DNA of 41,081 nt from a virus. The stretch spans positions 1-41,081 of IMG/VR virus record IMGVR_UViG_3300047373_000487. One strand, given 5' to 3'. Position numbers and translations under genes: made by a program. Each line of letters starts with the position of its first letter. Positions within the stretch are counted from its first letter, which is position 1. The notes beneath the pieces are model-generated. The model ran no database searches, was not told the origin of the DNA, and saw only the letters and a program-made list of their open reading frames with translations. Of this stretch, positions 4,384 through 35,579 are shown in pieces.

Positions 4384-4398
4384 ATAGTTAATACCTAT
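4384..4398 (-). promoter_or_regulatory. 15-bp dyad upstream of 569-aa tail gene
   Basis: On the minus strand the site reads ATAGGTATTAACTAT, followed by a 12-base leader with AGAGG and then the ATG at 4371. It is one of a family of near-identical sites in this window (see 10918, 24401, 30733, 31645, 33457, 34455, 35565). It is preceded by an AT-rich TAATTT. It lies in the only gap between the holin and tail genes, so it may be a promoter element or an operator. Confidence 0.5.
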
Positions 4399-4401
4399 AA
4401 A

Positions 4402-4785
4402 TTATTTTTTAAAAAACCGATCGCCAAAGTAAAATCCGAGAACGCTTAGTATTGCCCAATGAACAACTTCGTTGAGGAGAGACAAGACAAAAACGGCGCT
4501 TTCCTTCGCGCCGGGATTATCAAAGCCGCCGATGATCCCAAGTGTTGCACACGCTAGTACCAACAAAGCCCAAACAACTGTAATGATAATAGCTATGAAA
4601 CGCCGGGCTATTTTGTAGGGAGCAGTTGCCTCGACAAACTTGAGGTATAGCTCCATGCGCTTTTGGTTAAACTCGGCCTTTTCTTCTTTTGTAAAAATGG
4701 CTTTATCTAAACCGTTGTATATGCCATCCGCAGCTTTTTTGACTACATCTGCATCACCGAACATTTTTCCAATTAGCTTAAGCAT
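4402..4785 (-). CDS. Holin, 3TM family (GTA-type)
   Basis: This 127-residue protein begins MLKLIGKMFGDADVVKKAAD, the characteristic N-terminus of the 'holin of 3TMs' family. A charged helix (residues 30-60, FTKEEKAEFNQKRMELYLKF) is followed by membrane segments at about 63-85 and 97-121 and a basic C-terminus. The expected role is to permeabilise the inner membrane at the end of infection so that an endolysin reaches the wall. It overlaps the upstream 109-residue membrane protein by 8 bases, forming a small lysis cassette inside the tail-gene region. The only peptidoglycan-hydrolase candidate in the window, the M15 peptidase, is about 16 kb away in the same operon direction. Family assignment is from recognisable sequence; function was not tested. 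Confidence 0.8.
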   Translation of the reverse strand: MLKLIGKMFGDADVVKKAADGIYNGLDKAIFTKEEKAEFNQKRMELYLKFVEATAPYKIARRFIAIIITVVWALLVLACATLGIIGGFDNPGAKESAVFVLSLLNEVVHWAILSVLGFYFGDRFFKK

Positions 4786-5107
4786 CCCGCCTCCCGATAA
4801 TGGCTACTGTCGTATTGAACGCATTGATAGCGCTTTCAAGAGATTGGAAAGCGCGGGTGTTGTCTTTAATTAACTCGTTGTTAGTTCGCAACAACTGTTG
4901 GCTAAGCTCTACTTCATCGTGAACTTCAGTACTTGTATCTAGTAGTCTGTCCATTTGCGCAACTAGTCCTTCTAAAATCTGGTTGTTTCTTTCAGTTTCT
5001 GTTGCGGTGTTTTCGATTTTTGTTTTAACGCTGTACACGACAAACAAAATCCCTGAATACGTAGCTACCGCCCCTAGAATCCCTAAAGTAAGTTCAACAC
5101 TCAACAT
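4778..5107 (-). CDS. Small membrane protein with coiled coil (possible inner-membrane spanin)
   Basis: I chose the ATG at 5107 because it overlaps the previous stop (TGATG) and has GGAG upstream; this gives 109 residues. An N-terminal membrane segment (about residues 5-27) is followed by a long charged helix (about 28-95) with heptad-like spacing and many Glu, Gln and Asn. A single N-terminal anchor plus an extended coiled coil next to a holin is the topology of Rz-type inner-membrane spanins, but no sequence match to that family can be claimed and no partner outer-membrane lipoprotein was seen. It could equally be a holin regulator or a phage membrane protein of unknown role. Overlap with the holin start (8 bases) suggests co-translation. 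Confidence 0.65.
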   Translation of the reverse strand: MLSVELTLGILGAVATYSGILFVVYSVKTKIENTATETERNNQILEGLVAQMDRLLDTSTEVHDEVELSQQLLRTNNELIKDNTRAFQSLESAINAFNTTVAIIGRRDA

Positions 5108-5352
5108 CACTCCGACTCCCAAGTAATACTAGTTGTGTTAGCTGAAACCTTTACTTGAGTTGCAGTTTGGCGTGAAGTTATTGTTTGTACAGGTTGACCG
5201 CTACCCGTGATCTGTACCGCCGAGTAACCCGTCTGCACAGGTGTCTCGTTTACAACAGGGTTTAACCGCTCAAAATTAAAAATTTCGCGGTTAATACCTT
5301 GCACACCGCGCAAGCCCCTAGTCGCCAAAGCTAAACGCGTGTTAATTGTCAC
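5107..5352 (-). CDS. Hypothetical protein, 81 aa
   Basis: The GTG at 5352 overlaps the stop of the 417-residue gene by 4 bases (GTGA), and the stop overlaps the next ATG (TGATG), so it is locked between two genes by coupled overlaps. The protein begins MTINTRLALATRG, is soluble, and has a Thr/Gln/Val-rich second half (VQTITSRQTATQVKVSA) that suggests beta structure. There is no recognisable domain. Its position after the virion-decoration genes suggests a minor structural protein, but this is an inference from context only. Confidence 0.6.
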   Translation of the reverse strand: MTINTRLALATRGLRGVQGINREIFNFERLNPVVNETPVQTGYSAVQITGSGQPVQTITSRQTATQVKVSANTTSITWESE

Positions 5353-6602
5353 GTTCGAGTAACCTGAGTAGTGGAGCCATCTGGCTGAGTAATAGTAAGC
5401 GTAATATCGTCTGCGACAATCGAGGTATCTGTCACTGTCTGGGGGTTAGTGGCATCTAGGCCAGCAATCTTCCAAAGCTCGCTTATGCGAGCGTCCGATA
5501 CTGGATCACTAGCGTTATCCTCGATCGCTTGATTGACTGTCAGGTCTCTGACACTAGCTGTCCCCGTGCTGTTGTCGAATACAAGTCCCACACCTCGAAC
5601 TGGGAAATCTCCAGCAACAATAGTTGGATCAAAGAAAATCGCAGCACTGTTGAGATCAATACACGCATCACCATCTAAGTTTGTTTCCGTGTGGTTAAGA
5701 AGCCTCAACGTCCCGCTGTAGTTTCGCAGCAACAATTCACCAGAGCCACCCATGTCGATTTCAGGTGGCGGTCGTCCAGCAAGCGTGTTACCAAAACAAT
5801 CAAGAGCCCCCAAAAGTGTGTTGGGGTTCAGTGTTATTTTTCCGTTGAAACTGCATTTGTAAACGAATCCGCTGGTGTAGGTTACGTCTTGAAGAACACA
5901 CTCTCGGTATACGTTGTTGCCGTCTAAAACTCCCGCGATGTTCATATTGTAGAAAGTACAGTTCGTTACGTTAGCTGTGGTATCTATGGTTATCGCTTGC
6001 TTGACTGGTGAGTCAGACGTAAATTCAAAACCATCCGAAAAATCTACGGCTGCAATAGTCGTAGTGCTTAAACAGCGAATGACATGAATGCCCTCCCGCT
6101 CTGCGATTGTTTTTGCATCAGCAAAATTGTTCACTGGCGTTGATCGAGTTCCAATCGGAACGACTGTCCCGGCTTGTCCCCTAGATTCGGTATCCACACA
6201 AACTTCGCCTTGGTAGGCGGCAGATAAAAGCAGCGACAAATCTTGTAGTCCAGCCGAATTCGACGAGCTTACTGACACTTGGTTAACGTTAGTAACATCA
6301 GCAAGGTTAGTGTTGGCACCAGATAAATTTACCCTGTACTGACCGTCCTGAAACGTCACAGTGTAGCCGTTTATAATTTCTACAACTCTTGCAAGTATAA
6401 CGCCGCCAACGGGAACAGGATCGGAGTAGCTATGGGTAGTCTCGAATGCCATACCGTCTACGTCATCTTCAAGATTTCGTAAAATCAAATGCAGCGCATC
6501 CATGTTTAGCTGGTAAATTTCGACTGGAGTGCTTTGGGTTTGAACCATGTCACTCTTGTTTATGCTGATGACCTTTGTCGGCCAGTCAATTGAAATAGCC
6601 AT
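5349..6602 (-). CDS. Virion protein, predicted beta-helix, 417 aa
   Basis: The protein has an N-terminal globular part (about residues 1-90) followed by a segment rich in short beta strands with regularly spaced Cys/Asn/Thr (NCTFYNMNIAGVLDGNN, ECVLQDVTYTSGFVYKC), typical of a right-handed parallel beta-helix in phage decoration or tail proteins. The C-terminal 60 residues include a helical SDARISELWKIAGLD segment seen in other phage virion proteins. A smaller version of the same architecture is visible in the neighbouring 583-residue gene, which also contains NCTF-like repeats (residues about 390-400). No catalytic motif is seen. The structural role is inferred from architecture and location. 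Confidence 0.7.
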   Translation of the reverse strand: MAISIDWPTKVISINKSDMVQTQSTPVEIYQLNMDALHLILRNLEDDVDGMAFETTHSYSDPVPVGGVILARVVEIINGYTVTFQDGQYRVNLSGANTNLADVTNVNQVSVSSSNSAGLQDLSLLLSAAYQGEVCVDTESRGQAGTVVPIGTRSTPVNNFADAKTIAEREGIHVIRCLSTTTIAAVDFSDGFEFTSDSPVKQAITIDTTANVTNCTFYNMNIAGVLDGNNVYRECVLQDVTYTSGFVYKCSFNGKITLNPNTLLGALDCFGNTLAGRPPPEIDMGGSGELLLRNYSGTLRLLNHTETNLDGDACIDLNSAAIFFDPTIVAGDFPVRGVGLVFDNSTGTASVRDLTVNQAIEDNASDPVSDARISELWKIAGLDATNPQTVTDTSIVADDITLTITQPDGSTTQVTRT

Positions 6603-6610
6603 ATCAAACC

Positions 6611-6811
6611 TCAGTCTTCGCTATGGACGGTACTCCCCATACCTCGACCATTCAGATGTCCAATTAACTGTTTGGTGTTTGCCAAATCTCCGCTCACAAT
6701 CAAGATCGTGTTTTCAAGATACTTTATTTTCTTTTCCAGCTCTTCTACTCGCGCCGCTAGGGTTTTGCTATTTTGATGAAGCGCGTTAATATTTTTGTCT
6801 TGATAGTCCAT
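6611..6811 (-). CDS. Small coiled-coil protein, 66 aa
   Basis: The protein is almost entirely one predicted coiled coil (LAARVEELEKKIKYLENTI in the centre) and has no membrane segment. I chose the ATG at 6811, four bases after the TAA of the 583-residue gene. An upstream ATG at 6841 would add ten residues and overlap that gene by 26 bases without a visible ribosome binding site. It sits between two virion proteins, so a trimerisation or chaperone role is possible but unsupported. The gene stops 8 bases before the ATG of the 417-residue gene. Confidence 0.55.
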   Translation of the reverse strand: MDYQDKNINALHQNSKTLAARVEELEKKIKYLENTILIVSGDLANTKQLIGHLNGRGMGSTVHSED

Positions 6812-6815
6812 GCAG

Positions 6816-10371: not shown

Positions 10372-10548
10372 TTAATTTTTTATTACCGCTTTTAGTGAGT
10401 TATTCACTGCTTTGGTGCTAACTGAAACAGTGTTTACTCCGTTTAAAGCAACCGTAGTGGTTTGCATCGGAACTGTAAGAGCAACCGCCCATGACTGGAC
10501 CGTAACTCCTTTGCCCTGAACAAAGTCTGTCACGCTAATACTTGGCAT
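10372..10548 (-). CDS. Small virion-region protein, 58 aa
   Basis: Translation from the ATG at 10548 gives 58 residues (start MPSISVTDFVQGKGV, end KAVIKN) and a TAA at 10372. The start overlaps the stop of the 118-residue gene by one base (TAATG), which argues for a real coupled gene. The protein is Val/Thr/Ser-rich (VPMQTTTVALNGVNTVSV), predicting beta strands and no membrane anchor. It is unrecognised; the position between two virion genes suggests a minor structural component. Confidence 0.6.
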   Translation of the reverse strand: MPSISVTDFVQGKGVTVQSWAVALTVPMQTTTVALNGVNTVSVSTKAVNNSLKAVIKN

Positions 10549-10904
10549 TAGCTAATTGCTAAAGTTATGTCGCGCAGGACTTTAACTTTCCCAAGAAGTA
10601 GTGTTGAGACCTGCCCGTCATCTACTTGCTGCAGATCGTAAAAGTATTTTCCGGGGGATAGCGCGGCGGTTTGTGCGCTAGAAAATACTACATACACGAT
10701 TCCTGCTAGTGCATCGGCCCCTGTTGCAGTGACAGTCGCTTGCGCGTCTGCATTCAAATCAGTGACTTCTGGGTCTGCTTTTAAAGTGAGGTAATAAACG
10801 TTATCTGTAATGTCGATAGCGGCATTGTTCTCATCGGTAAATGCAAATTTGTTTGTCCATGTGTCACCTCGGACAAAAGTGTTTAAATCGACTTGCGTGA
10901 CCAT
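10548..10904 (-). CDS. Small beta-rich virion protein, 118 aa
   Basis: The protein begins MVTQVDLNTFVRGDTWTNKF, followed by a TDENNAAIDITD segment and a LSPGKYFYDLQ segment. This RGDTW...F.....G.P.dlTg...Y.y.l arrangement is typical of small phage proteins related to the BppU N-terminal or Ig-like baseplate/tail modules. It is preceded by a copy of the 15-bp dyad (10918-10932) and an AGGA ribosome binding site, so it may head a transcription unit for the decoration and tail genes downstream. It is coupled to the next 58-residue gene by TAATG. A precise role cannot be given. Confidence 0.65.
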   Translation of the reverse strand: MVTQVDLNTFVRGDTWTNKFAFTDENNAAIDITDNVYYLTLKADPEVTDLNADAQATVTATGADALAGIVYVVFSSAQTAALSPGKYFYDLQQVDDGQVSTLLLGKVKVLRDITLAIS

Positions 10905-10917: not shown

Positions 10918-10932
10918 ATTGGTGATACCTAT
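10918..10932 (-). promoter_or_regulatory. 15-bp dyad upstream of 118-aa virion gene
   Basis: On the minus strand the site reads ATAGGTATCACCAAT, in the 31-base gap between the giant ejection protein gene and the 118-residue gene. A TAAAAT hexamer (10933-10938) abuts it upstream and could be a -10 box. The start codon lies 13 bases downstream with AGGA between. It has both half-sites of the family consensus. Confidence 0.55.
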
Positions 10933-10935: not shown

Positions 10936-13900
10936 TTAATCCAATTCTTGTAGAATTTCTCGACGTAGAATAGGCAGTTGACTAACGCCGGGTGTCGATT
11001 TCAGCATCTTCAAAGCTAGGGTTCGATCACCATAGTCCTCAAACATCAGCTCGTAGAGATGGTGCGTAGTTGGCCCCAAAGCATACGCCGCAGTTTCAGC
11101 ACTAGGATTAGTAATAACATCTGTAAACGGCAAGGAAAACAGTCCCGAGCGGGTAGCCCAGTTCTCTATCATTTGCCCACGGTCTCCTCGTGCGCCGTCT
11201 AACGAACCTTGTGTACCGATACTCTTTATTCGATTTCTAAGCTCATCAGATAATGCTCCAAAAAGCATAAAGACATACAACATGCCCATAAGAGTAGGGA
11301 GTAATGTATTCACCTCTTCCCCGTTTTGGACCCGCTGATTAGCCTCCCTAGCAACACCGCCCAGGATTCGCTTGTTGTATGTGTATGCAAACTGCTTTAA
11401 GTGGAAGACCATGCCGCCAAGAGCCGTCTCCGCCCAAACCGTCTTTTCTGAGGCGTTTGGCCGCAAAACAGCTTTGTTTATAAAGGTATCTATGCCAAAC
11501 AAAACTTTTTCTACGGCAACGCGCTCATCGCCTTTGAGAGCCCACGCTTCCGCCGGTTCCCCAAGTTTGACCCAGAGCTGGACATCCTGCGGAGTTATGC
11601 CGAGTTCTGCTAAATATCGAAAGGTACTAGCAGAGGCATTTCCGGTAACTGCTTGGGCAGCTATCCGCTTTACAAACAACCTACCTGCTTGAGCGGCGAT
11701 AACTCTGGTGTAACGGGTTACAAAATCGTTACCGTTGTATTTAAACATAGCGGGCAAGATTCTTCGGGGGCCAAAGCCTGTCCCCATCCTAGCGTCTTTC
11801 TCCAGATCCTGAATCATCGCGCCAGTAGCCGCGCCAGCTAGAACCCCCATATCTTCCGCAAACTCTTTCATCTGCTGCGGGTTTTGTAGGGTCTCTGCAA
11901 GTATGCCCCGAAACTCTCTCCCCGATAGAACGCCCTTCATCGAGCTGTAGATTCCGGCCAGTTCCGCTGTACTAGCAACACCAGAAAATAAAAGGGTTCT
12001 AAGGCTTTCAAACGCTTTAACTTCCGCCAGAAAGTTGTGCCATTTGTTATTGGGGTCTAAGCCGTTAGGCCAGATTGACCCATTTACTAAATTTATAAAC
12101 TCCGCGTGTTGTTCTTTCGGGATGTCTCTCAGTGCAGTTTGTAAATTTAGCAAGGAATTGTATTTTCCTGTCGCGGGATCATACCCGCCAAAGACGCGCT
12201 CAAAGTTTGTTCGAGACATTACGTCTTCGATATAACGAGTGAAATCGCCTACAGGATCTGTATTCAAAAAACCGGCTTTTACCAAAGCTTTAATAAGTTC
12301 TGGGTCTTTAAGTGTACGGTTGCGCTCCCAGCCTCGCACCAACGTAGTTGCGCCGTTGTCGTTCACTTTATTTTGCGGCGTTAAAATATGGTTGGTAACT
12401 ACCGTAGGGTTCTTTACGCCGTACTGTTTCAGGACAGCCTCAAAGCCACTGACATCGTTTGCGATATTCACTTTATCAAAAACGCGATGCCAAAAGTTCT
12501 CGACCTTCGAATCGGCCAAGTAAGGCATATTTACTTTGATGACGGTTTCCCACAAGTCTTCCATCAAAGCACGGAACTGTTTAGCAACGTCCGTTTTCAA
12601 TTCATTAGTAGGCGTTTCGGTAGCTAGTTCGTAGTACGCTTTTGACATCTCTGCTTCCGAGGCACCTTTTTTTATGCTCTCTGCTCGGGCAAGCCACGCA
12701 TTTCTATCGCGCTCGTATCCCGAACGCCATGATCTCCCGCCGTTAAGATACGTCACGCCTTTTTCGTATCTAATCCCTTCACCGTGCCTATAAATATCGT
12801 CAGTATTTGCGTAAATAGCGCGAGCGGTTGGTTCGTGTACCTCAGTGAGTAGCGCGTCACGGGTCATGACGAGCTGCCCAACTCTTGTGTTAGTGAATGC
12901 CTTCACGCCTTGCCTAATTTTGCTCGCGGCATAGCGCAATGTGTCTTTGCTTATAACGTCTTGTATACGCTTTTGAGTCTCACCAAAGTTAATGTTTATA
13001 TCGCTGAAGCCGTCTTTACTCAAAGCGACCGCCATATCTATGTCAAAAACTCCCGGCTTGAGCCCGTCTATAAATCGATCAAAGGCTTTGTTGTTAGCAA
13101 AGCGCTTTGGGACAGTCCCTTTGACGGCGTTGAACAGTGTCTTTAATTGTTTAACAACCTTTTCGTAAATATGTTCGGCTAAGTTAGTCGGCTTGCGTTT
13201 GTTAACCTGACGTTGCCCCCATCCTGCAATTTTGTCGGCAAACCATTCTTTGAAACCTTGTTTTCCTGTCCAAGCCGGTTGAGGGTTTTCCTCCGATTCT
13301 TTTTTCCAAAGTTTTACTAAATGCGCTTTTTGGTTTGCGGTTAAGTTGTTCCGGGCTGAGTCCAGCAAAACATGGCCCGCTTCATGCGCTAGTACAAACT
13401 TGTGGTTGGCATCTCGCTCTTGGGCGAGCGCTGTCGAATCAGTTTCAACGGGTGCGTTCGGGCGGGTAACAATAATCCGCCTTTTGCCAGTTCCAAAAGT
13501 AGTCGCTTTTACATTAGGGTCTCGGAATTTAGCCTGTATCGCTTCTCGATATGGGGTAAGCGTTGGGCCTAGTACAGAAGAAACCGAATCCAAATCCATG
13601 ATAGTAATAGTGGTTTCACTTACTTCGCCTGCCGGTCCAGTAAAAAGCCCCGCTTGATTCAAAACGTAGCTGACGTAATCTACATCGTTTTGAGTCACGC
13701 CTTTGCCGATCCCTTGGACTTGCCCAACGTTGCCTCTTCCTTTTCCAGTGCGAGACTCGGTTAAAGGGGTAGGGCCGGGGGTAGATACTTTGCGATTCTC
13801 CGCTACATACTGGGTCAAAGCGTCGGACACTGCCTTTGTTGTAAGTATCTTCTCCTGCTTGCTTTCAAACTGCGCTACGCGCTTTTGCAATCCTCGAATG

Positions 13901-16900
13901 GCACTGCGAGCCTGTCCGGGTTGCATCTTTGAATCGCCAATACTAATCACCTTGGCTTTCGCATTAAGTTGATTTACAAGCTTTTCAATATTCTTTTTGT
14001 CTGTATCCGCCGAGCGTTGATTGTACTCGCCAACGGGTACAGTCGTCTTTTCCTCAACTGCTGGGGGTAGCACTTCAGTAAGCAGACGGGCTTCTTGCGA
14101 TTGGTTTGCAAAATCTCCCGCCGCCGTTACGTTGCCTTGGGCATCCTTCCTAACGGTAATTTCTTCGGGGCGATTGTCTTGGGTGTTTGTTGCTCTTTCA
14201 GTACCAGCGTATGGTCGCCTGCTTTGTACGGCTGCTAAAGCGGGTGCCCACGAAAAATTATCATCGGGCGTGAAAGGCCGTTGTCCGTCTTTTGTTCGTG
14301 CCGAGTTGATAGACGCGAGTTTGGCTTCCTCTAGCTTTTGCGTGGCTTGGTTGTATTTTTGAATCAACTGCGGCTCAGTAGGGAGGGGCGCTACTTTTGC
14401 TTTTTTACTGCCACGGTTTTTTCGTGGAATAATTTGAGCGTCCAAGCGACCAGTGGTACGAGCGATGCGTAATTGCTCTAAAGTTTCCATCGCCTCGATA
14501 GCCCGAGTTTCTCTGGTGTCTTTCTCGGCTTGTTTCTGTTTGCCCCACAGTCTTGTTCCAGTATCTTTTAGCCTTGTAACCCGCTCATTTTTTATAACGT
14601 TACCGTGCTGAATAACTTGATTCGGAGATGTAGCTTTTTCTGGAATCTGCCAGCCACGAGTCTTTAGCTCGCCAATCATGCGAAGATAGCCTTGCCCGAT
14701 CATTTCGCCGCTGGTCATATCGCCGGTCTGTTGTTCTCCGACGAGCATGTCGATACCGCCGTTTGTGATATCGGAAACGGCCAAGGGGACCGGCTTGCCA
14801 CCCCTCGGTGGGATAGCATAGATAAGCGTTTCTTCAGCCCGTTTGCTGACCGCTTGGTTTCGACTGTTCGTTAATTTCGAACGTTGTTGCCCCTGCCTCT
14901 CTGCGGCTTTTATCGTGTCATGAGTTAACAACGCTGGAGTAGTGTAGGGCACCCCTCGTGTGAGATTCGTAAATTTGGTCTTACGATTAGGAATGGTAAG
15001 CGTGTCGGTTACAATGGCAGGTGTCGCAAACTCCAAAACTCCAGTGGAACCCTCGCGTACAGGCGGAGATAGTACTGGATTACTTTCACCGAGCCATTCC
15101 TGCAATTTGCTGTAATCAAGTTGTAAGTTGTTAAACACACGGTTTTCATAAGAAGCTTGCCCCTCTGGTGTGGCTGAGTCTGTGGGGTTATAGCCGTATG
15201 AAAGATCTACTCTGTTTAGTAAGTTCCCGCCACGTTCGTTAAATTCCACATTTTCTTCTGACGCGATAACTCCGCTAATCGTGGGCTCAAACGTACCTTC
15301 ACCAGCGGGTTTAGGACCAACTTGTGCGATTTGCTGGTCTCGAAGTTCACTAGCATTTTGTGGTGTATCTTCAAGAATGTCTTCGGTAATAGCGCTATCG
15401 TCAAATTGTGTGAGAAACTGGGCTTGTACTTCAGGTTTTGCATTGGATAAAGCGATAATCTCATCCGCTGCCATTGTTGTGTTGTCACGTAGCGCCTCTG
15501 CCATTCGCGTTTGCAGAAGTTCTCGACCTTTTTTTCGTTGGGATAGGTTGTTAAGTAACTGCCCGATACGTTCGGCGGAGGCTACTTGCGCATTCTCAAG
15601 ATCTTGCGTTCCAGTTTTTGCAATGCGCCCTGCGAGGGCTTGTAGCGTGGCTGGAATGCCATCTTGCTCGGAAAGGACGCTTACGTTTCGTCCTTCACCC
15701 GCTTGGAAATAAGCCTCTTCCAACGCTTTGCCCAAGCCTTCTTCATTTGTTGCAATCTCAGTAACAACACCGCCCGTAGCTGGGTCGGTAACTTGGACCA
15801 CTCGGTTGCTATCAACCGGCTTGCCCGCTTCACTGTTATATAAAATTGAACCAAAAAGACTATCAGAAGCTTCATTTGTCCTTACCTTTTCTGCTGTTTC
15901 ATTGTCGTTGGTGTAAACCGTTTCGCCAGTTGGAAACTCAATTCGTTCCATACCAAAAGGCAAGGGCCTGCCCATTGTGTAAGGATCGTAGCTTCCCGGT
16001 GTTACCAGCATGGCCTTTTTGGTACTTCCCTCGTCCTCAAGCGCTGTTGCTTGAGCCTCCATGTCAGTTTTACCTTCTGGTATAGGTGCAACACCCTCAG
16101 CATCGAAGGGGTCGCCCGTAACAGGGGTTTCAGTAACGCTTTCCATTTCGGCTTGCGCCGCTTGGTAGTCGTAGTCTGTTGGTTCTGGGTTATCGTTTTC
16201 ATTAGGCTCTGCCTCGTATCGTGCGGCAAGGTCATCAACTTCTGTTTCTGCGCCTTGTTGACCTGTGCCAAAAGCCTCTTCGTCCATGCGAGCGTTTGCG
16301 TCTTGCTCTGCTTTTTTCACCTTGGATATTTCGTAGACTTGCGCGGGCACTGTCATGCCAGCAGCAAATGAACCACCGACGATGCCGCCTTTCAAAAAGG
16401 CATCGCCAATTTCTTTGAGATTTTCGTAATCTGAAAATTCGTAGCTAGGGTCGAGGAGGTTGGTTGCGCCCATGTCGACTACAGTTTGCATAGCCTCTGT
16501 TAAGGCTTCTCGGGAAGACCCTCGACCAAACGTAGTCCCTAAATTTGTAAGCATATCGAGCCAGCCGGATACCGGCTTATTGGTAGCCCTAGCTGCGTCA
16601 CGAATACCTTTTAAGCCAACCATGTCCAAGGCGGCTTTCACGCCGCCTGTTACAAAAGCTGCTCCGGGTTCATCTAAACCCCTTTGGTTAAACCCGACTT
16701 GAGTTTCGCCAGTGTTTAGAGTGTAAGAAGCGGCGGCGGCACCAGCAATTTGTCCTCTGTTTTTCGCCTTCATGAATTCAGCCATGGCATCTTTGCCCAG
16801 CTTACGTTTCATGTATTTGCCTAATGTCGCGGAAGCCGCTTTCGATCCTACGGCTTTTGCGCCAAGCGCTGCGGCACCACCGGCACCTCCAGAACCTAAG

Positions 16901-17178
16901 ACGGCTAAAAGAGTAGGTGCGCCTTCTCCAAGCGCTTCAATAAAGTAAGTACCGAAGTCAGATAAAGAGTCGATGTCATCCCAACTCTCTATGCGGGGAG
17001 GGTTGCGGCGCAACTCCTCAAGGTTGCTCTCAATACCGGCTTGGCTCCACTTCTCAAGAGAGTCAGCCCCCAAAAAACTACCGATGGCATTGGCAAAGCC
17101 ATAGCCCATCATTTGCGTTTGGTCTACGCCTCTCCCGAATGCGTTTCCGAAAAGGCTACCATCATCCATCTCGGACAT
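10936..17178 (-). CDS. Giant internal virion (ejection) protein with zinc-peptidase motif, 2080 aa
   Basis: This is by far the longest gene, occupying the place of T7 gp16 or DarB-like giant virion proteins, directly after two or three smaller ejection-type genes. An Ala/Gly-rich hydrophobic stretch lies near residues 86-120 and another near 255-275. A long low-complexity, Glu/Gln/Thr-rich middle follows. A zincin motif HEAGH is at residues 1265-1269 inside the segment NHKFVLAHEAGHVLLDS. The C-terminal 700 residues are helical, with a hydrophobic segment near 1960-1975. Such modular giants ('polyvalent' or ejection proteins) are known to be carried in the virion and delivered to the host. The peptidase might process host or virion proteins or open the wall; that is an inference. 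An AGGGAG site precedes the ATG. The gene could encode more domains than I can recognise. Confidence 0.8.
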   Translation of the reverse strand: MSEMDDGSLFGNAFGRGVDQTQMMGYGFANAIGSFLGADSLEKWSQAGIESNLEELRRNPPRIESWDDIDSLSDFGTYFIEALGEGAPTLLAVLGSGGAGGAAALGAKAVGSKAASATLGKYMKRKLGKDAMAEFMKAKNRGQIAGAAAASYTLNTGETQVGFNQRGLDEPGAAFVTGGVKAALDMVGLKGIRDAARATNKPVSGWLDMLTNLGTTFGRGSSREALTEAMQTVVDMGATNLLDPSYEFSDYENLKEIGDAFLKGGIVGGSFAAGMTVPAQVYEISKVKKAEQDANARMDEEAFGTGQQGAETEVDDLAARYEAEPNENDNPEPTDYDYQAAQAEMESVTETPVTGDPFDAEGVAPIPEGKTDMEAQATALEDEGSTKKAMLVTPGSYDPYTMGRPLPFGMERIEFPTGETVYTNDNETAEKVRTNEASDSLFGSILYNSEAGKPVDSNRVVQVTDPATGGVVTEIATNEEGLGKALEEAYFQAGEGRNVSVLSEQDGIPATLQALAGRIAKTGTQDLENAQVASAERIGQLLNNLSQRKKGRELLQTRMAEALRDNTTMAADEIIALSNAKPEVQAQFLTQFDDSAITEDILEDTPQNASELRDQQIAQVGPKPAGEGTFEPTISGVIASEENVEFNERGGNLLNRVDLSYGYNPTDSATPEGQASYENRVFNNLQLDYSKLQEWLGESNPVLSPPVREGSTGVLEFATPAIVTDTLTIPNRKTKFTNLTRGVPYTTPALLTHDTIKAAERQGQQRSKLTNSRNQAVSKRAEETLIYAIPPRGGKPVPLAVSDITNGGIDMLVGEQQTGDMTSGEMIGQGYLRMIGELKTRGWQIPEKATSPNQVIQHGNVIKNERVTRLKDTGTRLWGKQKQAEKDTRETRAIEAMETLEQLRIARTTGRLDAQIIPRKNRGSKKAKVAPLPTEPQLIQKYNQATQKLEEAKLASINSARTKDGQRPFTPDDNFSWAPALAAVQSRRPYAGTERATNTQDNRPEEITVRKDAQGNVTAAGDFANQSQEARLLTEVLPPAVEEKTTVPVGEYNQRSADTDKKNIEKLVNQLNAKAKVISIGDSKMQPGQARSAIRGLQKRVAQFESKQEKILTTKAVSDALTQYVAENRKVSTPGPTPLTESRTGKGRGNVGQVQGIGKGVTQNDVDYVSYVLNQAGLFTGPAGEVSETTITIMDLDSVSSVLGPTLTPYREAIQAKFRDPNVKATTFGTGKRRIIVTRPNAPVETDSTALAQERDANHKFVLAHEAGHVLLDSARNNLTANQKAHLVKLWKKESEENPQPAWTGKQGFKEWFADKIAGWGQRQVNKRKPTNLAEHIYEKVVKQLKTLFNAVKGTVPKRFANNKAFDRFIDGLKPGVFDIDMAVALSKDGFSDININFGETQKRIQDVISKDTLRYAASKIRQGVKAFTNTRVGQLVMTRDALLTEVHEPTARAIYANTDDIYRHGEGIRYEKGVTYLNGGRSWRSGYERDRNAWLARAESIKKGASEAEMSKAYYELATETPTNELKTDVAKQFRALMEDLWETVIKVNMPYLADSKVENFWHRVFDKVNIANDVSGFEAVLKQYGVKNPTVVTNHILTPQNKVNDNGATTLVRGWERNRTLKDPELIKALVKAGFLNTDPVGDFTRYIEDVMSRTNFERVFGGYDPATGKYNSLLNLQTALRDIPKEQHAEFINLVNGSIWPNGLDPNNKWHNFLAEVKAFESLRTLLFSGVASTAELAGIYSSMKGVLSGREFRGILAETLQNPQQMKEFAEDMGVLAGAATGAMIQDLEKDARMGTGFGPRRILPAMFKYNGNDFVTRYTRVIAAQAGRLFVKRIAAQAVTGNASASTFRYLAELGITPQDVQLWVKLGEPAEAWALKGDERVAVEKVLFGIDTFINKAVLRPNASEKTVWAETALGGMVFHLKQFAYTYNKRILGGVAREANQRVQNGEEVNTLLPTLMGMLYVFMLFGALSDELRNRIKSIGTQGSLDGARGDRGQMIENWATRSGLFSLPFTDVITNPSAETAAYALGPTTHHLYELMFEDYGDRTLALKMLKSTPGVSQLPILRREILQELD

Positions 17179-24306: not shown

Positions 24307-24400
24307 TACCTACCGTCAGCTATTCGGCGCTGAAACCAAGGCCCGGCTATATGTCAGTCGGTCAACATAGCGTTTTCGTAGTTCTCACGATCTCTCAATT

Positions 24401-24415
24401 ATAGGCAACGCCTAT
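24401..24415 (-). promoter_or_regulatory. Perfect dyad and -10 box, candidate capsid promoter
   Basis: ATAGGC, three bases, GCCTAT is a perfect 15-bp palindrome and a member of the dyad family. On the minus strand an exact TATAAT (24414-24419) overlaps its upstream edge, but no good -35 box is seen 16-18 bases further. The site lies 147 bases upstream of the capsid ATG, with no gene between, so a capsid-specific transcript could start here. Confidence 0.5.
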
Positions 24416-24430
24416 TATATAAGCAAGTAT

Positions 24431-25643: not shown

Positions 25644-27862
25644 TATTGGGGGTTCCTAGGTTGTTGGGACATATAAGCGGCTTTTTCCCGCTCTAATTGG
25701 CGATTCAACTCGCCTTTAACCAATTCCGTGCGCCGTTTTTCGGTTTGAGACGCTCGATCTTGGATAATTCTACCTTTGGTGCTAAGTGCTGTTTGGTCAA
25801 ATCGGCTGCGAGCAGACAATGAGGCAAGGTCACGGCGCAGCTGCAAGCCTTCTCGCGCTTTGAGCAAGTCAGCCTCGATCTCTTCACGCCGCATTTCATA
25901 CTGTGGAGAGTCAATACCACCTTGTTGCATGGAGGCTTCTGCTGCGATTTTCATCGCCTCAGCTTCGAGTTTCATAACCTCCGCTTCAGCCTTAGCCGTT
26001 TCTGCGGCCATCATGCGAGCTTGCATCTCCATCTCGAACTGCATCTGCTGCATTTGCTGTTCGCTCATCTCGCCACGGCCAGTGAGTTCGCGGATTTCTT
26101 CAGCCAACTCAAACTTTTTAGCCAAATGGCTGTATTCGATGATGCGATCGTCGGGAACAGCGACTCCGACTTGACGGAGGGACAAGGCTTCAGCAAATTG
26201 ACTGTCATCGAAGCTATCTTTGGCAGGCATAGTCGATAATGTGACCTCGTATTTACCTACCGAGATGTCATTGATGACTTCACCAGTCGCCTGTTGGATG
26301 TTTATCGCTAATTCTTCGTCTTGTTGGCTCTCAAAACCAATGCCTTCGGTCGTAATCGCAAAAACACGCGGTTCCGTGTAGAACTGTTGTACCAATTCGA
26401 GTACTTTCCGCCCAATAAAGAACCTAGTTCGCTGTAAATTATCAAAAGGAACAGCAATTTGGACTTGGCCGCGCATTGTCTTCTCTTGAAGCGCAACACC
26501 GGACACTTCCGCGCCTTCCATACCCAACATGGCCTCGTTTATGCCTGAAATCTCTTTAATAAACTGTGCCGATTTAATAGCAGCTCTTTCGATGCCCGAT
26601 GGCGGGCGATTTGGCTCTATTTTGGTCAAACCACCGATTCTGCCGGGGTTAGTTTCGATCACGAGCCCAGTTTCGGCCCCCTGATCCCGCAAATCATCAG
26701 CAGACATGCCATTTAACGTGCCAGCTTCCACAATCCAGCCTGAATTTGCTGTCGTGTTGAGAATATGTAGCTCTTGGCTCGATAATTTGTTGAGCTGCTC
26801 TTGCGGGGAGATAAGATTAGTGACTAGACCGAAAGGCTTGCCACGGCGGAAGTAAGCAAAGTACGGGATCTTCGTAAAAGTCGCATACGGCGACCAGTCA
26901 TCGTGCAAAACGACCCGATCAGCGGTTGTTGTCCATCGAACCTTCTTTTCGACCTTCTGCACAAGGCTGACCCCTGTGCGCATCGCAAAGTCCTCGATCT
27001 TCTCCATGTCCCAAGTGTTGGGCACTCTTTTTGAGTCACCTGTTTCTGGGTCAACGAAACGGTAGCAAGGCTCGTAACGAATATGCTGACGTTCGACAAC
27101 CCGGACTTGCCGGACTGTCTTCTCATCGTCCATCGACCGCGCCCATGTCGAAGTCTCTTCGTTGTCCCGCGCATCACCGAAGGTTGTCTCTTCATCGTAC
27201 TGAACAGAGTCCGTAGAGAAGCGATTACTGTTAATACCTATATTTCTAATCCGGTCTGCTTTGTCTTGTCCGTAAAGCTGCTCGATCTCATCGACGGACA
27301 TCCATCTTGTTTCGAAGACTTCGCGCCAAGTAGAGGGGTCGTACTCTTTTGCATCTGGGTCAAGCAGGATTTCACGCGGGTCATCGCTGCGAATAACAAC
27401 GTCACCGACCATATTGTCATCAAAGTCGACACGAATATCAAAAAACCCACGCCCATGCTGGATGATGCCATCAGCGAACACCTCACTTTCTACCCAATCG
27501 TAATGGTTGGCGTCTTTAATCGCTGCGCATAGTTTTGTAAGTACAGTCGCCGTGTCTTCGGAGCCGCCGTTCCGTGGTTTATATTTAAACTCAACACGCC
27601 TTGCGGTTTGTTCGCCTAACACAGCATTCACTGTACTGAGTATCATGTTAATCGTTAGGGCAGGGCGTTTCTGTGCAGCAAGGACTTGTTCGTCAGCTTT
27701 TTCCCACTGCTCTCCGATGTAAAAATTGTTGCACTTATCTGCCATTGCAAGGTATTCATTGTGCCCGTGATCCCGCGCTCGCTCATAGCGATGCCACTGC
27801 AACTCCGCAGCTTTGGCCTCCGCGTCAATTTCTTTTTGGTCTCTGTCTTTATTCTCGTGCAT
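25643..27862 (-). CDS. Portal protein, P22-like
   Basis: I chose the ATG at 27862 (739 residues), eight bases after the terminase stop, with AGGA seven bases upstream; a TTG start 24 bases earlier would overlap the terminase gene. The N-terminal part contains FYIGEQWEKADEQVLAAQKR and LTINMILSTVNAVLGEQTAR, the typical opening of P22-type portals. Residues 150-200 hold DPREILLDPDAKEYD. The C-terminus (about residues 590-730) is a long Gln/Met/Glu/Ala/Arg-rich coiled coil, the barrel region of P22-like portals. The protein forms the dodecameric vertex through which DNA enters and leaves. Length is close to P22 (725 aa). Context between TerL and scaffold confirms the call. Confidence 0.85.
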   Translation of the reverse strand: MHENKDRDQKEIDAEAKAAELQWHRYERARDHGHNEYLAMADKCNNFYIGEQWEKADEQVLAAQKRPALTINMILSTVNAVLGEQTARRVEFKYKPRNGGSEDTATVLTKLCAAIKDANHYDWVESEVFADGIIQHGRGFFDIRVDFDDNMVGDVVIRSDDPREILLDPDAKEYDPSTWREVFETRWMSVDEIEQLYGQDKADRIRNIGINSNRFSTDSVQYDEETTFGDARDNEETSTWARSMDDEKTVRQVRVVERQHIRYEPCYRFVDPETGDSKRVPNTWDMEKIEDFAMRTGVSLVQKVEKKVRWTTTADRVVLHDDWSPYATFTKIPYFAYFRRGKPFGLVTNLISPQEQLNKLSSQELHILNTTANSGWIVEAGTLNGMSADDLRDQGAETGLVIETNPGRIGGLTKIEPNRPPSGIERAAIKSAQFIKEISGINEAMLGMEGAEVSGVALQEKTMRGQVQIAVPFDNLQRTRFFIGRKVLELVQQFYTEPRVFAITTEGIGFESQQDEELAINIQQATGEVINDISVGKYEVTLSTMPAKDSFDDSQFAEALSLRQVGVAVPDDRIIEYSHLAKKFELAEEIRELTGRGEMSEQQMQQMQFEMEMQARMMAAETAKAEAEVMKLEAEAMKIAAEASMQQGGIDSPQYEMRREEIEADLLKAREGLQLRRDLASLSARSRFDQTALSTKGRIIQDRASQTEKRRTELVKGELNRQLEREKAAYMSQQPRNPQ
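27227..27241 (-). promoter_or_regulatory. Dyad-like site inside portal gene
   Basis: On the minus strand the site reads ATAGGTATTAACAGT, sharing the 12-base core ATAGGTATTAAC with the site upstream of the 569-residue tail gene. It lies within the portal coding sequence, far from any start, so it may be chance. It is recorded because the core is identical. Confidence 0.25.
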
Positions 27863-30122: not shown

Positions 30123-30465
30123 TCTGTTCTTCCACTAATGCCTCGGCTAACTCTATAACCGTGTCGTGACCCCAGAAATTTTTTGCCACGTTATACGCTA
30201 AACAAACGAGTTGTATATTTGAATGCACATAGCCTCCAGAAGAATTGATGCGATCTAAACTGGGTTGCCATGGGTTGTTAGCCCGATTGCTAAATTCAAA
30301 TTTGGTATTTGTTACCGCGCATCGCCAATTTGTTTTTTCGAGTGCGGCCAGAATAGAACTACGTGTTATTGCAAACGGTATCTTTTTTTTAATAGCTCTC
30401 GTTCTAGCATTGGTGTGCATAACGTGAATTTGGTACGTCACATAGCACTCATCGTACATGGCCAT
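30115..30465 (-). CDS. HNH-like endonuclease
   Basis: I chose the ATG at 30465 (116 residues; another in-frame ATG is at 30459), overlapping the previous gene by 17 bases. The basic N-terminus (NARTRAIKKKIPFAI) is followed by WRCAVTN, then PSLDRINSSGGYVHSNIQLV (residues 68-87) and a final N92. This SLDRI...GY...N arrangement is a known phage HNH-superfamily variant in which the first His is replaced by Asp. HNH proteins beside terminases assist genome cutting in several phages, so a packaging role is likely, though a homing-type role is possible. The single cysteine and lack of a CxxC pair mean zinc binding is not obvious. Confidence 0.7.
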   Translation of the reverse strand: MAMYDECYVTYQIHVMHTNARTRAIKKKIPFAITRSSILAALEKTNWRCAVTNTKFEFSNRANNPWQPSLDRINSSGGYVHSNIQLVCLAYNVAKNFWGHDTVIELAEALVEEQNG

Positions 30466-30724
30466 CTTCGGCAATGAGGTGCTCAAGACAGCGCTCCAGT
30501 TCGGCCACCGGGCAGTACAGACTTGGGCCAAGTTCTAGTTGCGCACTTTTGATTTTGTGTACTGATATAGCGACCTCCACTGCATGGTCGAACACCGGTT
30601 TTCGCGCTCTTCGGTTGTAGTAAGAGGAGCGATGTACGCCTACAGCCTTCAGTGAGCTAAGAACTGCTCCGGTTTCAGCGAGGCTGTGCAGCAACTTCTC
30701 CCGTTTTTCTGGGAAGAATTTCAT
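30449..30724 (-). CDS. HTH protein heading the packaging operon, 91 aa
   Basis: The segment EKLLHSLAETGAVLSSLKAV followed by GVHRSSYYNRRARKP (residues 9-43) is a helix-turn-helix of the terminase-small-subunit/phBC6A51 type. The rest is a short helical tail. It is the first gene of the late (minus) arm and lies directly below the candidate promoter and dyad at 30733-30764. It could be a second small terminase-like DNA-binding protein, or a regulator of the divergent region. It overlaps the HNH gene. No clear GGAG is visible before the ATG. Confidence 0.65.
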   Translation of the reverse strand: MKFFPEKREKLLHSLAETGAVLSSLKAVGVHRSSYYNRRARKPVFDHAVEVAISVHKIKSAQLELGPSLYCPVAELERCLEHLIAEDGHVR

Positions 30725-30732
30725 CTTAAATT

Positions 30733-30747
30733 ATTGGTAACACCTAT
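30733..30747 (-). promoter_or_regulatory. 15-bp dyad before the packaging operon
   Basis: On the minus strand the site reads ATAGGTGTTACCAAT, eight bases before the ATG at 30724. Both half-sites match the family consensus. It lies just downstream of the candidate -10 box at 30759-30764, a position expected for an operator or a start-site element. Confidence 0.6.
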
Positions 30748-30758
30748 ATTTACCGCCA

Positions 30759-30764
30759 AGTATA
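30759..30764 (-). promoter_or_regulatory. Candidate -10 box of late promoter
   Basis: On the minus strand the hexamer TATACT is preceded by TTTTG (extended -10-like TG), with a run of T and a poor -35 (TTCATT) 17 bases upstream. Transcription would start near 30752 and read into the dyad and the packaging operon. It is the best sigma70-like box I see in the divergent region, but still weak. Confidence 0.4.
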
Positions 30765-31644: not shown

Positions 31645-31659
31645 ATTGGTCAGACCAAT
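31645..31659. promoter_or_regulatory. Perfect dyad ATTGGT-CAG-ACCAAT
   Basis: The palindrome has the same half-site as the dyad family (ATWGGT, 3-base spacer, ACCWAT) and extends to seven pairs with flanking A and T. It lies in the non-coding block rather than directly before a gene, so it may be the strongest binding site of the same regulator. Confidence 0.5.
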
Positions 31660-32175: not shown

Positions 32176-32292
32176 ATGACAGATATTAATGATATTTTCG
32201 CGCATTTCTTGCTTTCTTTAGAAACCGATGAAACTGAAGATTTACCAATAATTTCACTTTCTGTAATGGAGAATTTGTATTATGAAGTTTAA
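32176..32292 (+). CDS. Small acidic protein, 38 aa
   Basis: The ATG at 32176 has AAGGA nine bases upstream and encodes 38 residues (start MTDINDIFAHFLLSLETDET), acidic with a hydrophobic helix. The stop lies 11 bases inside the next gene, whose ATG is at 32282, so the two are likely coupled. It is unrecognised and too short for a domain. Confidence 0.5.
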   Translation: MTDINDIFAHFLLSLETDETEDLPIISLSVMENLYYEV

Positions 32293-32677: not shown

Positions 32678-32679
32678 AT

Positions 32680-33224: not shown

Positions 33225-33243
33225 CTCTTATAAGGAGATGTAG

Positions 33244-33450
33244 ATGTTAAACCAAAAACAGCTAGAGCGTGTCTGGTACAACCGTGAAATTGCAGCCGAT
33301 GCAGTTCACGGAATCAGCAGTTTAGCCGACCCAGCAACCATCTTAGAGCGCTTGGAGGAGCGCACAATAAACGAAGCGTCAGACTTAGGGACGCCGCAGT
33401 ACAAACAACGTTTGAATGAGCACTTTGAAATGTTCATGAAAACTTTGTAA
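33244..33450 (+). CDS. Early protein, 68 aa, helical
   Basis: AAGGAGATG precedes the ATG by a few bases. The protein is helical and acidic (KQLERVWYNREIAADAVHGI, then TILERLEERTINEASDLG) and has no cysteine or membrane segment. It is unrecognised and is the last gene before the dyad at 33457. Confidence 0.6.
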   Translation: MLNQKQLERVWYNREIAADAVHGISSLADPATILERLEERTINEASDLGTPQYKQRLNEHFEMFMKTL

Positions 33451-33456
33451 AGCATT

Positions 33457-33471
33457 ATAGGTATTGCCTGT
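33457..33471 (+). promoter_or_regulatory. 15-bp dyad before 277-aa gene
   Basis: The site reads ATAGGTATTGCCTGT and starts six bases after the stop of the 68-residue gene and 53 bases before the ATG at 33510. It is a member of the dyad family with one half-site slightly degraded. Confidence 0.5.
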
Positions 33472-33509
33472 AATTTAAATAACTGTTACTTTTAATTTAA
33501 GGGAAATTT

Positions 33510-34343
33510 ATGACTATCTATTCAACTGAAGACCACCAGCAAGGTACTGACCAGCCTATCCAAGTTGCTTTCGAAGCCGCAGTGGAGTTGCTCGAAGACA
33601 CTCAACGTTTCGGCGGTCAGTTCTACTCGGCACTCTGCAATCAAGCTGTGTTCGATATCGTCAACAACCAAAAAGTGGTATTTGACATGGAGGATCAGCT
33701 AGCTACAAACCCTGATTTGGAGCTTACCTCAGCGCAAGCTAACTATCTCGACCAATGCCGCAAGGCAGTCAGAGACGCTGGCCGTGTGCTAGATGTGGCT
33801 TATCTGCGGAGTAGCTTCACCTCAAACTACGATCTTACCCCTACGTGGGCGGTAAAGATCGCTTGCGAAGTACCTGACAAACTGGGCGCAGCAGACGAAG
33901 CTTTGTGTAAACAGGCATACAGAAACATGCTTTCTGCTTTGCCTAAAGATTATCCCGACTACGCAAAGCCTACGCTCCAATCAGTCTTAGACGAGGAGCT
34001 ACAAACAAAAGTAGCTCGCGCATCAAAGTATGTGGACATGCAACAACGCTTGCTTGACTTCACAAACGAGCGCATTAACGAAGCTAGGTCAACGACGATT
34101 GAGTTTTTCGCAGACTTTGCACCCAACGATCGGCACTTGCTACGTATTTGTAAAAAAGCAATGCAAACGATCGAAAAGCAGACCTTGCGCATGTTCAGCA
34201 GTCGTAATCCAAATGAGCAGGCTGATCTCGTCATCATGGGCGAATTCGGCAAGCGCATGGATGCACTAACGGGCATGTTGGAGCTGTCAATCGAGACAGC
34301 CAGCAACGACCCGTTCGGCATGGTAAATAATGCCACTCACTAA
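33510..34343 (+). CDS. Helical protein, 277 aa, unknown
   Basis: The protein has no signal or membrane segment and appears all-helical, with a central part (TLQSVLDEELQTKVARASKY, MQQRLLDFTNERINEARSTT) followed by RHLLRICKKAMQTIEKQ and NPNEQADLVIMGEFGKRMDA. It resembles early phage helical proteins of unknown function. It stands alone between a dyad (33457) and a strong terminator (34370-34407), so it is probably a monocistronic unit. GGGAA lies upstream of the ATG. Confidence 0.65.
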   Translation: MTIYSTEDHQQGTDQPIQVAFEAAVELLEDTQRFGGQFYSALCNQAVFDIVNNQKVVFDMEDQLATNPDLELTSAQANYLDQCRKAVRDAGRVLDVAYLRSSFTSNYDLTPTWAVKIACEVPDKLGAADEALCKQAYRNMLSALPKDYPDYAKPTLQSVLDEELQTKVARASKYVDMQQRLLDFTNERINEARSTTIEFFADFAPNDRHLLRICKKAMQTIEKQTLRMFSSRNPNEQADLVIMGEFGKRMDALTGMLELSIETASNDPFGMVNNATH

Positions 34344-34369
34344 CCACCCCCGCCGCACTGTCGGCACCC

Positions 34370-34407
34370 GCCCCTCGGCCTTAATTGGTCGGGGGGCAAC
34401 CTTTTTA
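34370..34407 (+). terminator. Rho-independent terminator
   Basis: GCCCCTCGGCC and GGTCGGGGGGC form eleven pairs (two G-U) around TTAATT, followed by AACCTTTTTATTT. It is the clearest terminator in the window and ends the 277-residue gene's transcript. Confidence 0.85.
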
Positions 34408-34454
34408 TTTAGGGCGCTTTTCTCGGGAATTCACTTTATGTCGATTCACAAGTT

Positions 34455-34469
34455 ATAGGTATTACCAAT
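34455..34469 (+). promoter_or_regulatory. 15-bp dyad directly before start of 128-aa gene
   Basis: The site reads ATAGGTATTACCAAT and its last two bases are the first two of the ATG at 34468. Its AGG would also serve as a Shine-Dalgarno, nine bases before the ATG. It follows the terminator, so a new transcript must start in the intervening 47 bases. A bound protein here would block both transcription and translation. Confidence 0.6.
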
Positions 34470-34854
34470 GAAAGATGCAACTTTGGCTATAAGAACACCT
34501 ATCGACCTTGCCGCGCTCATCGAAGCAATGGTTAGACGCATACAAACAACTGGCGACTCAACAGTCGTTGATTGGAACACAGGCGAAGTTTACAAAATGG
34601 CCTCTATTCTCGGGATTGTGAACTCACTGCGAACCGAAACAGATACTAACGAAGCTGAAATGATTGACATGCTACAAACAGAATTAGATTACGTTCAGCA
34701 ACTGCTTTACAACGCGATCGCGCAACTCGAACAAGCACAGTTTGAAGACTTAGAAAGTGTTGATGGTTCGTGGCATGTCAACTGCGCCGAACTAAAAAGT
34801 TACCTCAGTGCGACGATGTTCGACGCACTACCTCCCACTAATAAGGAAAGTTAA
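34468..34854 (+). CDS. Early/middle protein, 128 aa, unknown
   Basis: The protein is acidic and helical (PIDLAALIEAMVRRIQTTGD, then TELDYVQQLLYNAIAQLEQA), with a short beta part (VVDWNTGEVYKM). It is unrecognised. The ATG overlaps the dyad. The stop is directly followed by the ATG of the next gene, so they are coupled. Confidence 0.6.
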   Translation: MKDATLAIRTPIDLAALIEAMVRRIQTTGDSTVVDWNTGEVYKMASILGIVNSLRTETDTNEAEMIDMLQTELDYVQQLLYNAIAQLEQAQFEDLESVDGSWHVNCAELKSYLSATMFDALPPTNKES

Positions 34855-35058
34855 ATGACACACACAGAACCGCCTGGGCAGGTAACTGCATTGTTTGTTG
34901 CGGCGCAAATCGCTTTAGACATCACCGCTACTCAAGAGTGGGCTGATTTTTACTGCACCGCTCTCGGGATAAGTCCTTCTGAACTTGACAACCACCTATC
35001 CGCTGCAGCGCATTTTGTTAACGCAAATTTGTCGTTGCCAATGAAAGCAGTCAAGTGA
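34855..35058 (+). CDS. Small protein, 67 aa, unknown
   Basis: The ATG abuts the preceding TAA. The protein is small, helical and neutral (ALFVAAQIALDITATQEWAD, then LSAAAHFVNANLSLPM). No domain is recognised. It overlaps the downstream regulator-like gene by four bases (GTGA). Confidence 0.55.
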   Translation: MTHTEPPGQVTALFVAAQIALDITATQEWADFYCTALGISPSELDNHLSAAAHFVNANLSLPMKAVK

Positions 35059-35255
35059 GGCACCCGCAATCAACACGGCCTATGAAAAAAGGCAGGCCAC
35101 GGGCAAAAGGTAAATTTAAATCTCACGCTGAATTGCGAGAAGCAATCAAACAGCGTAGCCATTACCGCATTAGCCAACTCGCTCTCCACATGCAAATTCA
35201 ATGGCGTACAGCAAAACGTATTGTCGAAGAATTACGTGCGGAAAAGCGTACTTAA
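35055..35255 (+). CDS. Small AT-hook/HTH DNA-binding protein, 66 aa
   Basis: The GTG at 35055 overlaps the preceding stop by four bases; an internal ATG at 35082 would lose nine residues. The N-terminus is a basic AT-hook-like KKGRPRAKGK, followed by a helix (HAELREAIKQRSHY) and a helix-turn-helix (RISQLALHMQIQWRTAKRIV). The size and charge fit a phage transcription regulator, possibly the protein that binds the repeated dyad. That link is conjecture based on proximity to two of the sites. Confidence 0.6.
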   Translation: MRHPQSTRPMKKGRPRAKGKFKSHAELREAIKQRSHYRISQLALHMQIQWRTAKRIVEELRAEKRT

Positions 35256-35358
35256 TTAGCCTGAACTTTCTAATGTGTTAAAGCCCGGCAAGCAAGGGAA
35301 GTATAACTGACATCGAGCGGATGCAAGGCCGCAATTAAATTTAACAGAGGACATTTTC

Positions 35359-35568
35359 TTGAAAGCTTCTAACTGGACATTTACATACATGCCGGACGAT
35401 GCGACGCAAATCGAGTATTCGTTGCTCACCGATCCCCCTGAAGCAATTTATTGGAAAACCCACAGGCTCAAAAAGAGCCACATCAAGCTGTTAACAAAAG
35501 TTGACAGATCAAAAGCTGCCGAACTTCGGTCAGAAATACTGGAGGATATTTTACGCACCGAAACATAG
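35359..35568 (+). CDS. Small protein, 69 aa, unknown
   Basis: A TTG start at 35359 with AGAGGA eight bases upstream is the best choice; the next ATG is at 35389. The protein has beta-strand character (WTFTYMPDDATQIEYSLLTD) and a helical C-terminus (LTKVDRSKAAELRSEILEDI). It is unrecognised. Its stop codon lies inside the dyad at 35565. Confidence 0.45.
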   Translation: MKASNWTFTYMPDDATQIEYSLLTDPPEAIYWKTHRLKKSHIKLLTKVDRSKAAELRSEILEDILRTET

Positions 35569-35579
35569 GCATTACCTAA
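35565..35579 (+). promoter_or_regulatory. 15-bp dyad before ATPase cassette
   Basis: The site reads ATAGGCATTACCTAA and overlaps the stop of the 69-residue gene, 14 bases before the ATG of the ATPase gene. It follows the family consensus in both half-sites. It would mark the start of the ATPase/VWA/polymerase transcript. Confidence 0.55.

What the first reader, a model, noticed from the sequence alone, without database searches (positions are those of the whole stretch)
4384..35579. A 15-bp dyad family marks transcription-unit heads on both strands
Seven near-identical sites lie just upstream of genes in the sense orientation: 4384, 10918, 24401, 30733 on the minus strand and 33457, 34455, 35565 on the plus strand. 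The consensus is ATAGGY-RTT-RCCWAT, an imperfect palindrome. All lie in gaps before likely operon starts, one right after the strong terminator. The minus-strand sites are preceded by AT-rich TAAWWT-like hexamers; the plus-strand ones are not. This looks like a phage-wide operator, or a promoter element read by a phage factor. No phage RNA polymerase gene is visible in the window, so the reader protein is unknown.
Basis: partly seen in the sequence, partly recalled or inferred. Interest (0 to 1): 0.78.

Follow-up and report, generated by a model that had tools for sequence, protein, structure and literature searches.

The report
Scattered repressor operators of temperate podovirus
The repeated 15-base palindrome is real and is almost certainly the docking site of a lambda-like phage repressor, present before most gene groups of a dormant-capable virus so that one protein can silence early and late genes alike; the window's record stops short of the repressor gene, but relatives carry it.

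Summary
All seven sites exist at the stated coordinates; they are exactly the seven hits with at most one mismatch to ATAGGYNNNRCCTAT in the window, and all lie in the 4.6% that is intergenic. The same dyad recurs before orthologous genes in related viral contigs and in an integrated prophage of Parendozoicomonas haliclonae (major capsid protein 62% identical). It is absent from about 70 related contigs, four other prophages and the cultured relatives KPP25, AP1 and phiA008. The window is a 41-kb fragment lacking the lysogeny region. The two relatives that include it (51,988-bp contig G007; the prophage) each carry an integrase and a repressor whose DNA-binding domain matches lambda CI, with dyads directly upstream of the repressor gene. 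Pooled, the sites form a 17-bp palindrome, the size of lambda operators, inside sigma-70 promoters: -35 starts 11-12 nt before the dyad, and its right arm begins the TATAAT. Most likely function: dispersed operators of a CI-type repressor, some promoter-occluding, some operon-internal and perhaps transcription roadblocks. Binding is untested. The principle is known from P1, L5 and SP-beta.

The parts
4384..4398 (-). dyad ATAGGTATTAACTAT, 12 nt before the start of the internal virion protein gene 2662-4371 (-); operon-internal, no good sigma-70 promoter
   Evidence: ortholog in G005 at 47967
10918..10932 (-). dyad ATAGGTATCACCAAT in the 31-nt gap between the giant gene (10936-17178) and gene 10548-10904
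   Evidence: orthologous sites in G005 39803 and Parendozoicomonas 269543
24401..24415 (-). dyad ATAGGCGTTGCCTAT, 147 nt before the major capsid gene; distance 147-158 nt in all relatives compared
24398..24426 (-). sigma-70-type promoter TTGCTT-17-TATAAT enclosing the 24401 dyad (right arm gives the first half of TATAAT)
30733..30747 (-). dyad ATAGGTGTTACCAAT, 8 nt before gene 30449-30724 (small-terminase-like, phrog_4044)
30730..30759 (-). promoter-like TTGGCG-18-AATAAT enclosing the 30733 dyad
   Evidence: found by two separate scans
33457..33471 (+). dyad ATAGGTATTGCCTGT, 38 nt before gene 33510-34343
   Evidence: orthologs in G002 and G005
33445..33474 (+). promoter-like TTGTAA-18-TGTAAT enclosing the 33457 dyad
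34370..34397 (+). intrinsic terminator, 11 pairs (9 G-C) then T-run, upstream of the 34455 dyad
34455..34469 (+). dyad ATAGGTATTACCAAT at the start of gene 34468-34854
35565..35579 (+). dyad ATAGGCATTACCTAA, 14 nt before the ATG (35594) of the MoxR-like ATPase gene (phrog_1297)
   Evidence: orthologs in G002 and G005

Best explanation
The dyads are operators of a lambda-CI-type immunity repressor encoded next to the integrase, in the part of this temperate podovirus genome that the 41-kb record does not contain. A repressor dimer binds the 17-bp palindrome TATAGGYRNYRCCTATA. At operon heads (major capsid, small terminase, 277-aa gene; in relatives also the PD-(D/E)XK gene) the dyad fills the spacer and the start of the -10 of a sigma-70 promoter, so binding excludes host RNA polymerase. 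At operon-internal sites without a good promoter the bound repressor probably blocks elongation or read-through. In lysogeny one protein thus silences replication and structural genes directly, and it controls its own gene through dyads in its leader. Shown: the sites, their conservation, the promoter geometry, the repressor genes with adjacent dyads. Inferred: binding, repression, roadblock, and that the window's own virus carries the repressor.
For: Sites exceed chance and are intergenic. Same dyad before orthologous genes in relatives, including a chromosomally placed prophage with MCP 62% identical. De novo palindrome counting picks ATAGGY-3-RCCTAT as top family in G007 and the prophage and finds no comparable AT-containing family in four other prophages. 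Both relatives with the lysogeny region hold a 231-aa repressor matching lambda CI in the PDB, with dyads 73 nt and 30/49 nt upstream of its start. The two repressors are 36% identical over 128 aa and share the HTH core. No homologous repressor in the four prophages without the motif. -35 position enriched at offset -11/-12: 0 of 5000 shuffles, also with one site per ortholog; window alone 29 of 5000.
Against: No binding or expression data. The repressor gene is not in the window's record; only two repressor genes were available, so the co-occurrence test is small. Four of seven window sites (4384, 10918, 34455, 35565) have no convincing sigma-70 promoter, and in some relatives the ATG lies only 2-3 nt after the dyad, so a promoter there could not serve that gene. 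The -10 match is partly built into the palindrome. G007 also has several of its eleven near-matches inside genes.
Confidence: 0.83

Rival explanations
1. The dyad is a promoter recognised by a phage-encoded RNA polymerase or sigma-like factor.
For: Sites precede genes in sense orientation; upstream arm is better kept than the downstream arm (28 vs 18 perfect of 33); ATATAGG resembles T7-type start regions (own knowledge).
Against: No polymerase-like gene among the predicted genes of G005 or G007; the 846-aa protein is a DUF5906/VapE-type protein. Sites are palindromic, occur on the repressor gene's own leader, and carry sigma-70 -35/-10 elements in register. One search (PF00940) found none but its control failed to ring.
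Confidence: 0.06
2. The dyad acts as a hairpin: an N4-type single-stranded promoter or an RNA element in the leader, close to the ribosome site.
For: 6-bp stem with 3-nt loop is the size of N4 virion-polymerase promoters (own knowledge); many dyads lie 2-15 nt before the start codon; a giant virion gene is present.
Against: Only 13 of 33 sites can pair the full stem, and three of the seven window sites have a third-pair mismatch. The giant protein matches a virion structural family, no polymerase.
Confidence: 0.05
3. The operators are read by another DNA-binding protein, such as the excisionase-like HTH_17 protein of G005/G007, with a role in recombination, replication or activation.
For: G005 1903-2160 is a HTH_17/excisionase-family protein.
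Against: Excisionase sites cluster at the attachment site, not at gene heads across the genome (own knowledge); the dyads overlap promoters and lie at the repressor gene.
Confidence: 0.06

Closest known systems
Phage lambda CI repressor and its operators
   Same: N-terminal domain matches lambda CI structures; 17-bp palindrome with central base pair; operator overlaps sigma-70 promoters.
   Different: Lambda has six operators at two promoter regions (own knowledge); here 7-12 sites are spread over early and late operons. Bases 4-8 of the half-site differ (AGGYR instead of CACCG).
Mycobacteriophage L5/Bxb1 repressor stoperators
   Same: 20-30 sites across the genome, some in promoters and most not, oriented with transcription (PMC6550527).
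   Different: L5-type sites are asymmetric and the repressor binds as a monomer (PMC9283540); here the site is palindromic and the repressor lambda-like.
Phage P1 C1 operators
   Same: 22 operators dispersed over the genome (PMC8546580).
   Different: P1 operators are asymmetric 17-mers, ATTGCTCTAATAAATTT (PMC8546580).
SP-beta SPBRE and its repressor MrpR
   Same: 15-bp element in many intergenic promoter regions, first seen by sequence alone, later shown to be the master repressor's site (PMC10516654).
   Different: MrpR is a tyrosine-recombinase-like protein, not a CI-type HTH repressor (PMC10516654).
Phage phiC31 repressor and conserved inverted repeats
   Same: Dispersed palindromic operators (own knowledge, not verified here; one search found no paper).
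   Different: Different repressor family and host (own knowledge).

Membership tests
Dispersed operators of a temperate-phage immunity repressor | Many near-identical sites at gene heads across early and late operons | tested here: met
Dispersed operators of a temperate-phage immunity repressor | Cognate repressor gene in the same genome | tested here: met
   Met in G007 and the Parendozoicomonas prophage; the window's record is a fragment without that region, so inferred there
Dispersed operators of a temperate-phage immunity repressor | Repressor binds the sites and silences genes in the lysogen | not testable with these tools
   needs gel shift, ChIP or RNA-seq
Lambda CI family repressor | HTH domain homologous to lambda CI | tested here: met
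   PDB matches 3kz3/1lmb, E 2e-5 to 5e-5; 3bdn, E 4e-9; HTH_3 over cut-off
Lambda CI family repressor | C-terminal S24-type domain | tested here: inconclusive
   Weak Peptidase_S24 match, below cut-off, in the prophage repressor only; structure prediction failed
L5-type stoperators | Asymmetric site bound by a monomeric repressor | tested here: not met
   Site is a palindrome; repressor is lambda-like
L5-type stoperators | Repressor stops elongating polymerase at promoter-free sites | not testable with these tools
   Promoter-poor operon-internal sites exist but no transcription data
Phage RNA polymerase promoter | Single-subunit polymerase gene in the genome | tested here: inconclusive
   None seen in gene lists of G005/G007; PF00940 search empty but control silent

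The most novel reading that the evidence does not exclude
A lambda-CI-class dimeric repressor has taken over the stoperator strategy: besides occluding promoters, it stops elongating host RNA polymerase at promoter-free dyads between structural genes, so lysogenic silencing of late genes is direct.
Probability: 0.35. Interest if true: 0.65.

Novelty: new member of a known kind. Interest (0 to 1): 0.45.

Why it matters
It gives an uncultured group of environmental podoviruses a concrete regulatory map: it indicates that they are temperate, names the repressor, and lets immunity groups be predicted from the operator sequence. It also offers a palindromic, lambda-type counterpart to stoperators in which promoter occlusion and elongation block can be compared at sites of nearly the same sequence.

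Tried and rejected
The literal 17-letter reading ATAGGYNRTTNRCCWAT gives no real sites. DNA megablast to cultured phages found nothing. The motif is not in KPP25, AP1 or phiA008 nor in about 70 contigs with MCP at most 67% identical. DNA polymerase and integrase queries gave no, or only the known, contigs. Structure prediction of the repressor was useless (mean pLDDT 36), so no fold search was run. Repressor homologs in two other genomes of the host's order, and in contig L146, are loci without the motif. CsrA was considered for a 72-aa protein of G005/G007 but the Pfam match is weak. Matches inside the DNA polymerase gene (40150, 40583) are taken as chance or protein-driven.

Full report
OBSERVATION. 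ATAGGYRTTRCCWAT with up to 3 mismatches matches 31 times against 7.7 in shuffles. Intergenic DNA is 4.6% of the window by my gene list, and all seven lie there, two of them overlapping a gene edge by 2 and 4 bases. The terminator near 34380 is real.

WHAT THE WINDOW IS. The window is a whole IMG/VR record of 41,081 bases classed as linear, probably a fragment. It encodes a podovirus-like set: internal virion protein, major head protein, portal, terminase, a MoxR-like ATPase with a DUF2201 metallopeptidase/VWA protein, and a DNA polymerase-like gene cut by the right end (named from sequence by eye). Structural genes are on the minus strand, replication genes on the plus strand. The nearest cultured relatives by capsid are Pseudomonas KPP25 and phiR18 (56%), Acidovorax AP1 and Aeromonas phiA008 (46%).

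RELATIVES. Close contigs (G001-G011; capsid 81% or more identical where compared) carry the dyad. Some 70 contigs with capsid at most 67% identical do not, nor do KPP25, AP1 and phiA008. One exception is informative: a prophage in Parendozoicomonas haliclonae, capsid 62% identical, in a 703-kb contig beside what look like host ndk and rlmN genes, has at least ten dyads. Three of them are at the places of window sites 10918, 24401 and 30733. The distance from dyad to the major capsid start is 147-158 nt in all phages compared.

THE READER PROTEIN. Contig G007 (51,988 bp) and the prophage include the lysogeny region. Each has a tyrosine integrase and a 231-aa repressor (G007 12029-12724; prophage contig 315717-316412) whose N-terminal domain matches lambda CI structures. 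Dyads lie 73 nt upstream of the G007 gene and 30 and 49 nt upstream of the prophage gene. The two repressors share the HTH core ELNLTQVK...Q...QY.NG.I.LNT. In the ungapped alignments to lambda CI, the residues equivalent to lambda Gln33 and Gln44 are kept in both. From own knowledge of the lambda complex these contact the A of the outer TAT of the operator, which is also the part of the half-site shared here, while the inner bases differ. This is a consistency argument, not a test. Four other prophage regions of the wider family lack both this repressor and the motif.

GEOMETRY. Thirty-three sites from five genomes, aligned in gene orientation, give T-ATAGGYRNYRCCTAT-A with AT-rich flanks. A -35-like hexamer is enriched exactly 11-12 nt before the dyad: 0 of 5000 shuffles reach the value, also with one site per ortholog group; 29 of 5000 for the window alone. 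The -10 is formed by the right arm plus AAT. Examples: window 24401 TTGCTT-17-TATAAT, window 30733 TTGGCG-18-AATAAT, G002 5740 TTGACA-16-TATTAT, G005 7132 TTGATT-17-TATTAT. Promoter occlusion is therefore the simplest mechanism at these sites. Window 4384, 10918, 34455 and 35565 lack such a promoter; two of them sit in 30-nt gaps inside the late operon. There the repressor may block read-through, as L5 repressor does at stoperators (PMC6550527), but this is inference.

ALTERNATIVES. A phage polymerase promoter is unlikely: no such gene was seen in relatives covering most of the genome (one search is weak because its control stayed silent). A hairpin promoter or RNA element is unlikely: only 13 of 33 sites can pair fully, and the giant virion protein matches a structural family only.

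COMPARISON. Dispersed operators are known: 22 for P1 C1 (PMC8546580), 20-30 for L5-type repressors (PMC6550527), SPBRE of SP-beta (PMC10516654). The present case differs in pairing this layout with a lambda-CI-class repressor and a lambda-sized palindrome. I rate it a new member of a known kind. I found no paper describing it, but the library searched is partial.

LIMITS. No binding or expression data exist. Gene calls are mechanical. The window's own repressor is inferred. Orthologous sites are not fully independent in the statistics.

Noticed in passing
window 27227-27241 (-): A strong dyad match (ATAGGTATTAACAGT) lies inside the portal gene, in the NIGIN codons, kept in G002 and G005 but not in the Parendozoicomonas prophage; function or protein constraint is unresolved.
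   Followed up: partly
window 31645-31659: Perfect palindrome ATTGGTCTGACCAAT, using the half-site ATTGGT seen in the downstream arm of three window dyads, in the poorly coding divergent region; possible weaker operator.
   Followed up: no
window 35055-35255 (+): 66-aa basic, HTH-looking protein with no clear family match; not seen in G005.
   Followed up: partly
L110 12029-12724 (-) and L125 3717-4412 (+): By eye the S24-like domains of both repressors seem to lack the catalytic Ser and Lys, so induction may need an antirepressor rather than self-cleavage.
   Followed up: partly
L018 9700-9918 (-): 72-aa protein after the DNA polymerase with weak T7 gp5.5 and CsrA matches.
   Followed up: partly
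window 10936-17178 (-): 2080-aa protein, 3272 aa in the Parendozoicomonas prophage, matching only a virion structural PHROG near its C-terminal end.
   Followed up: partly
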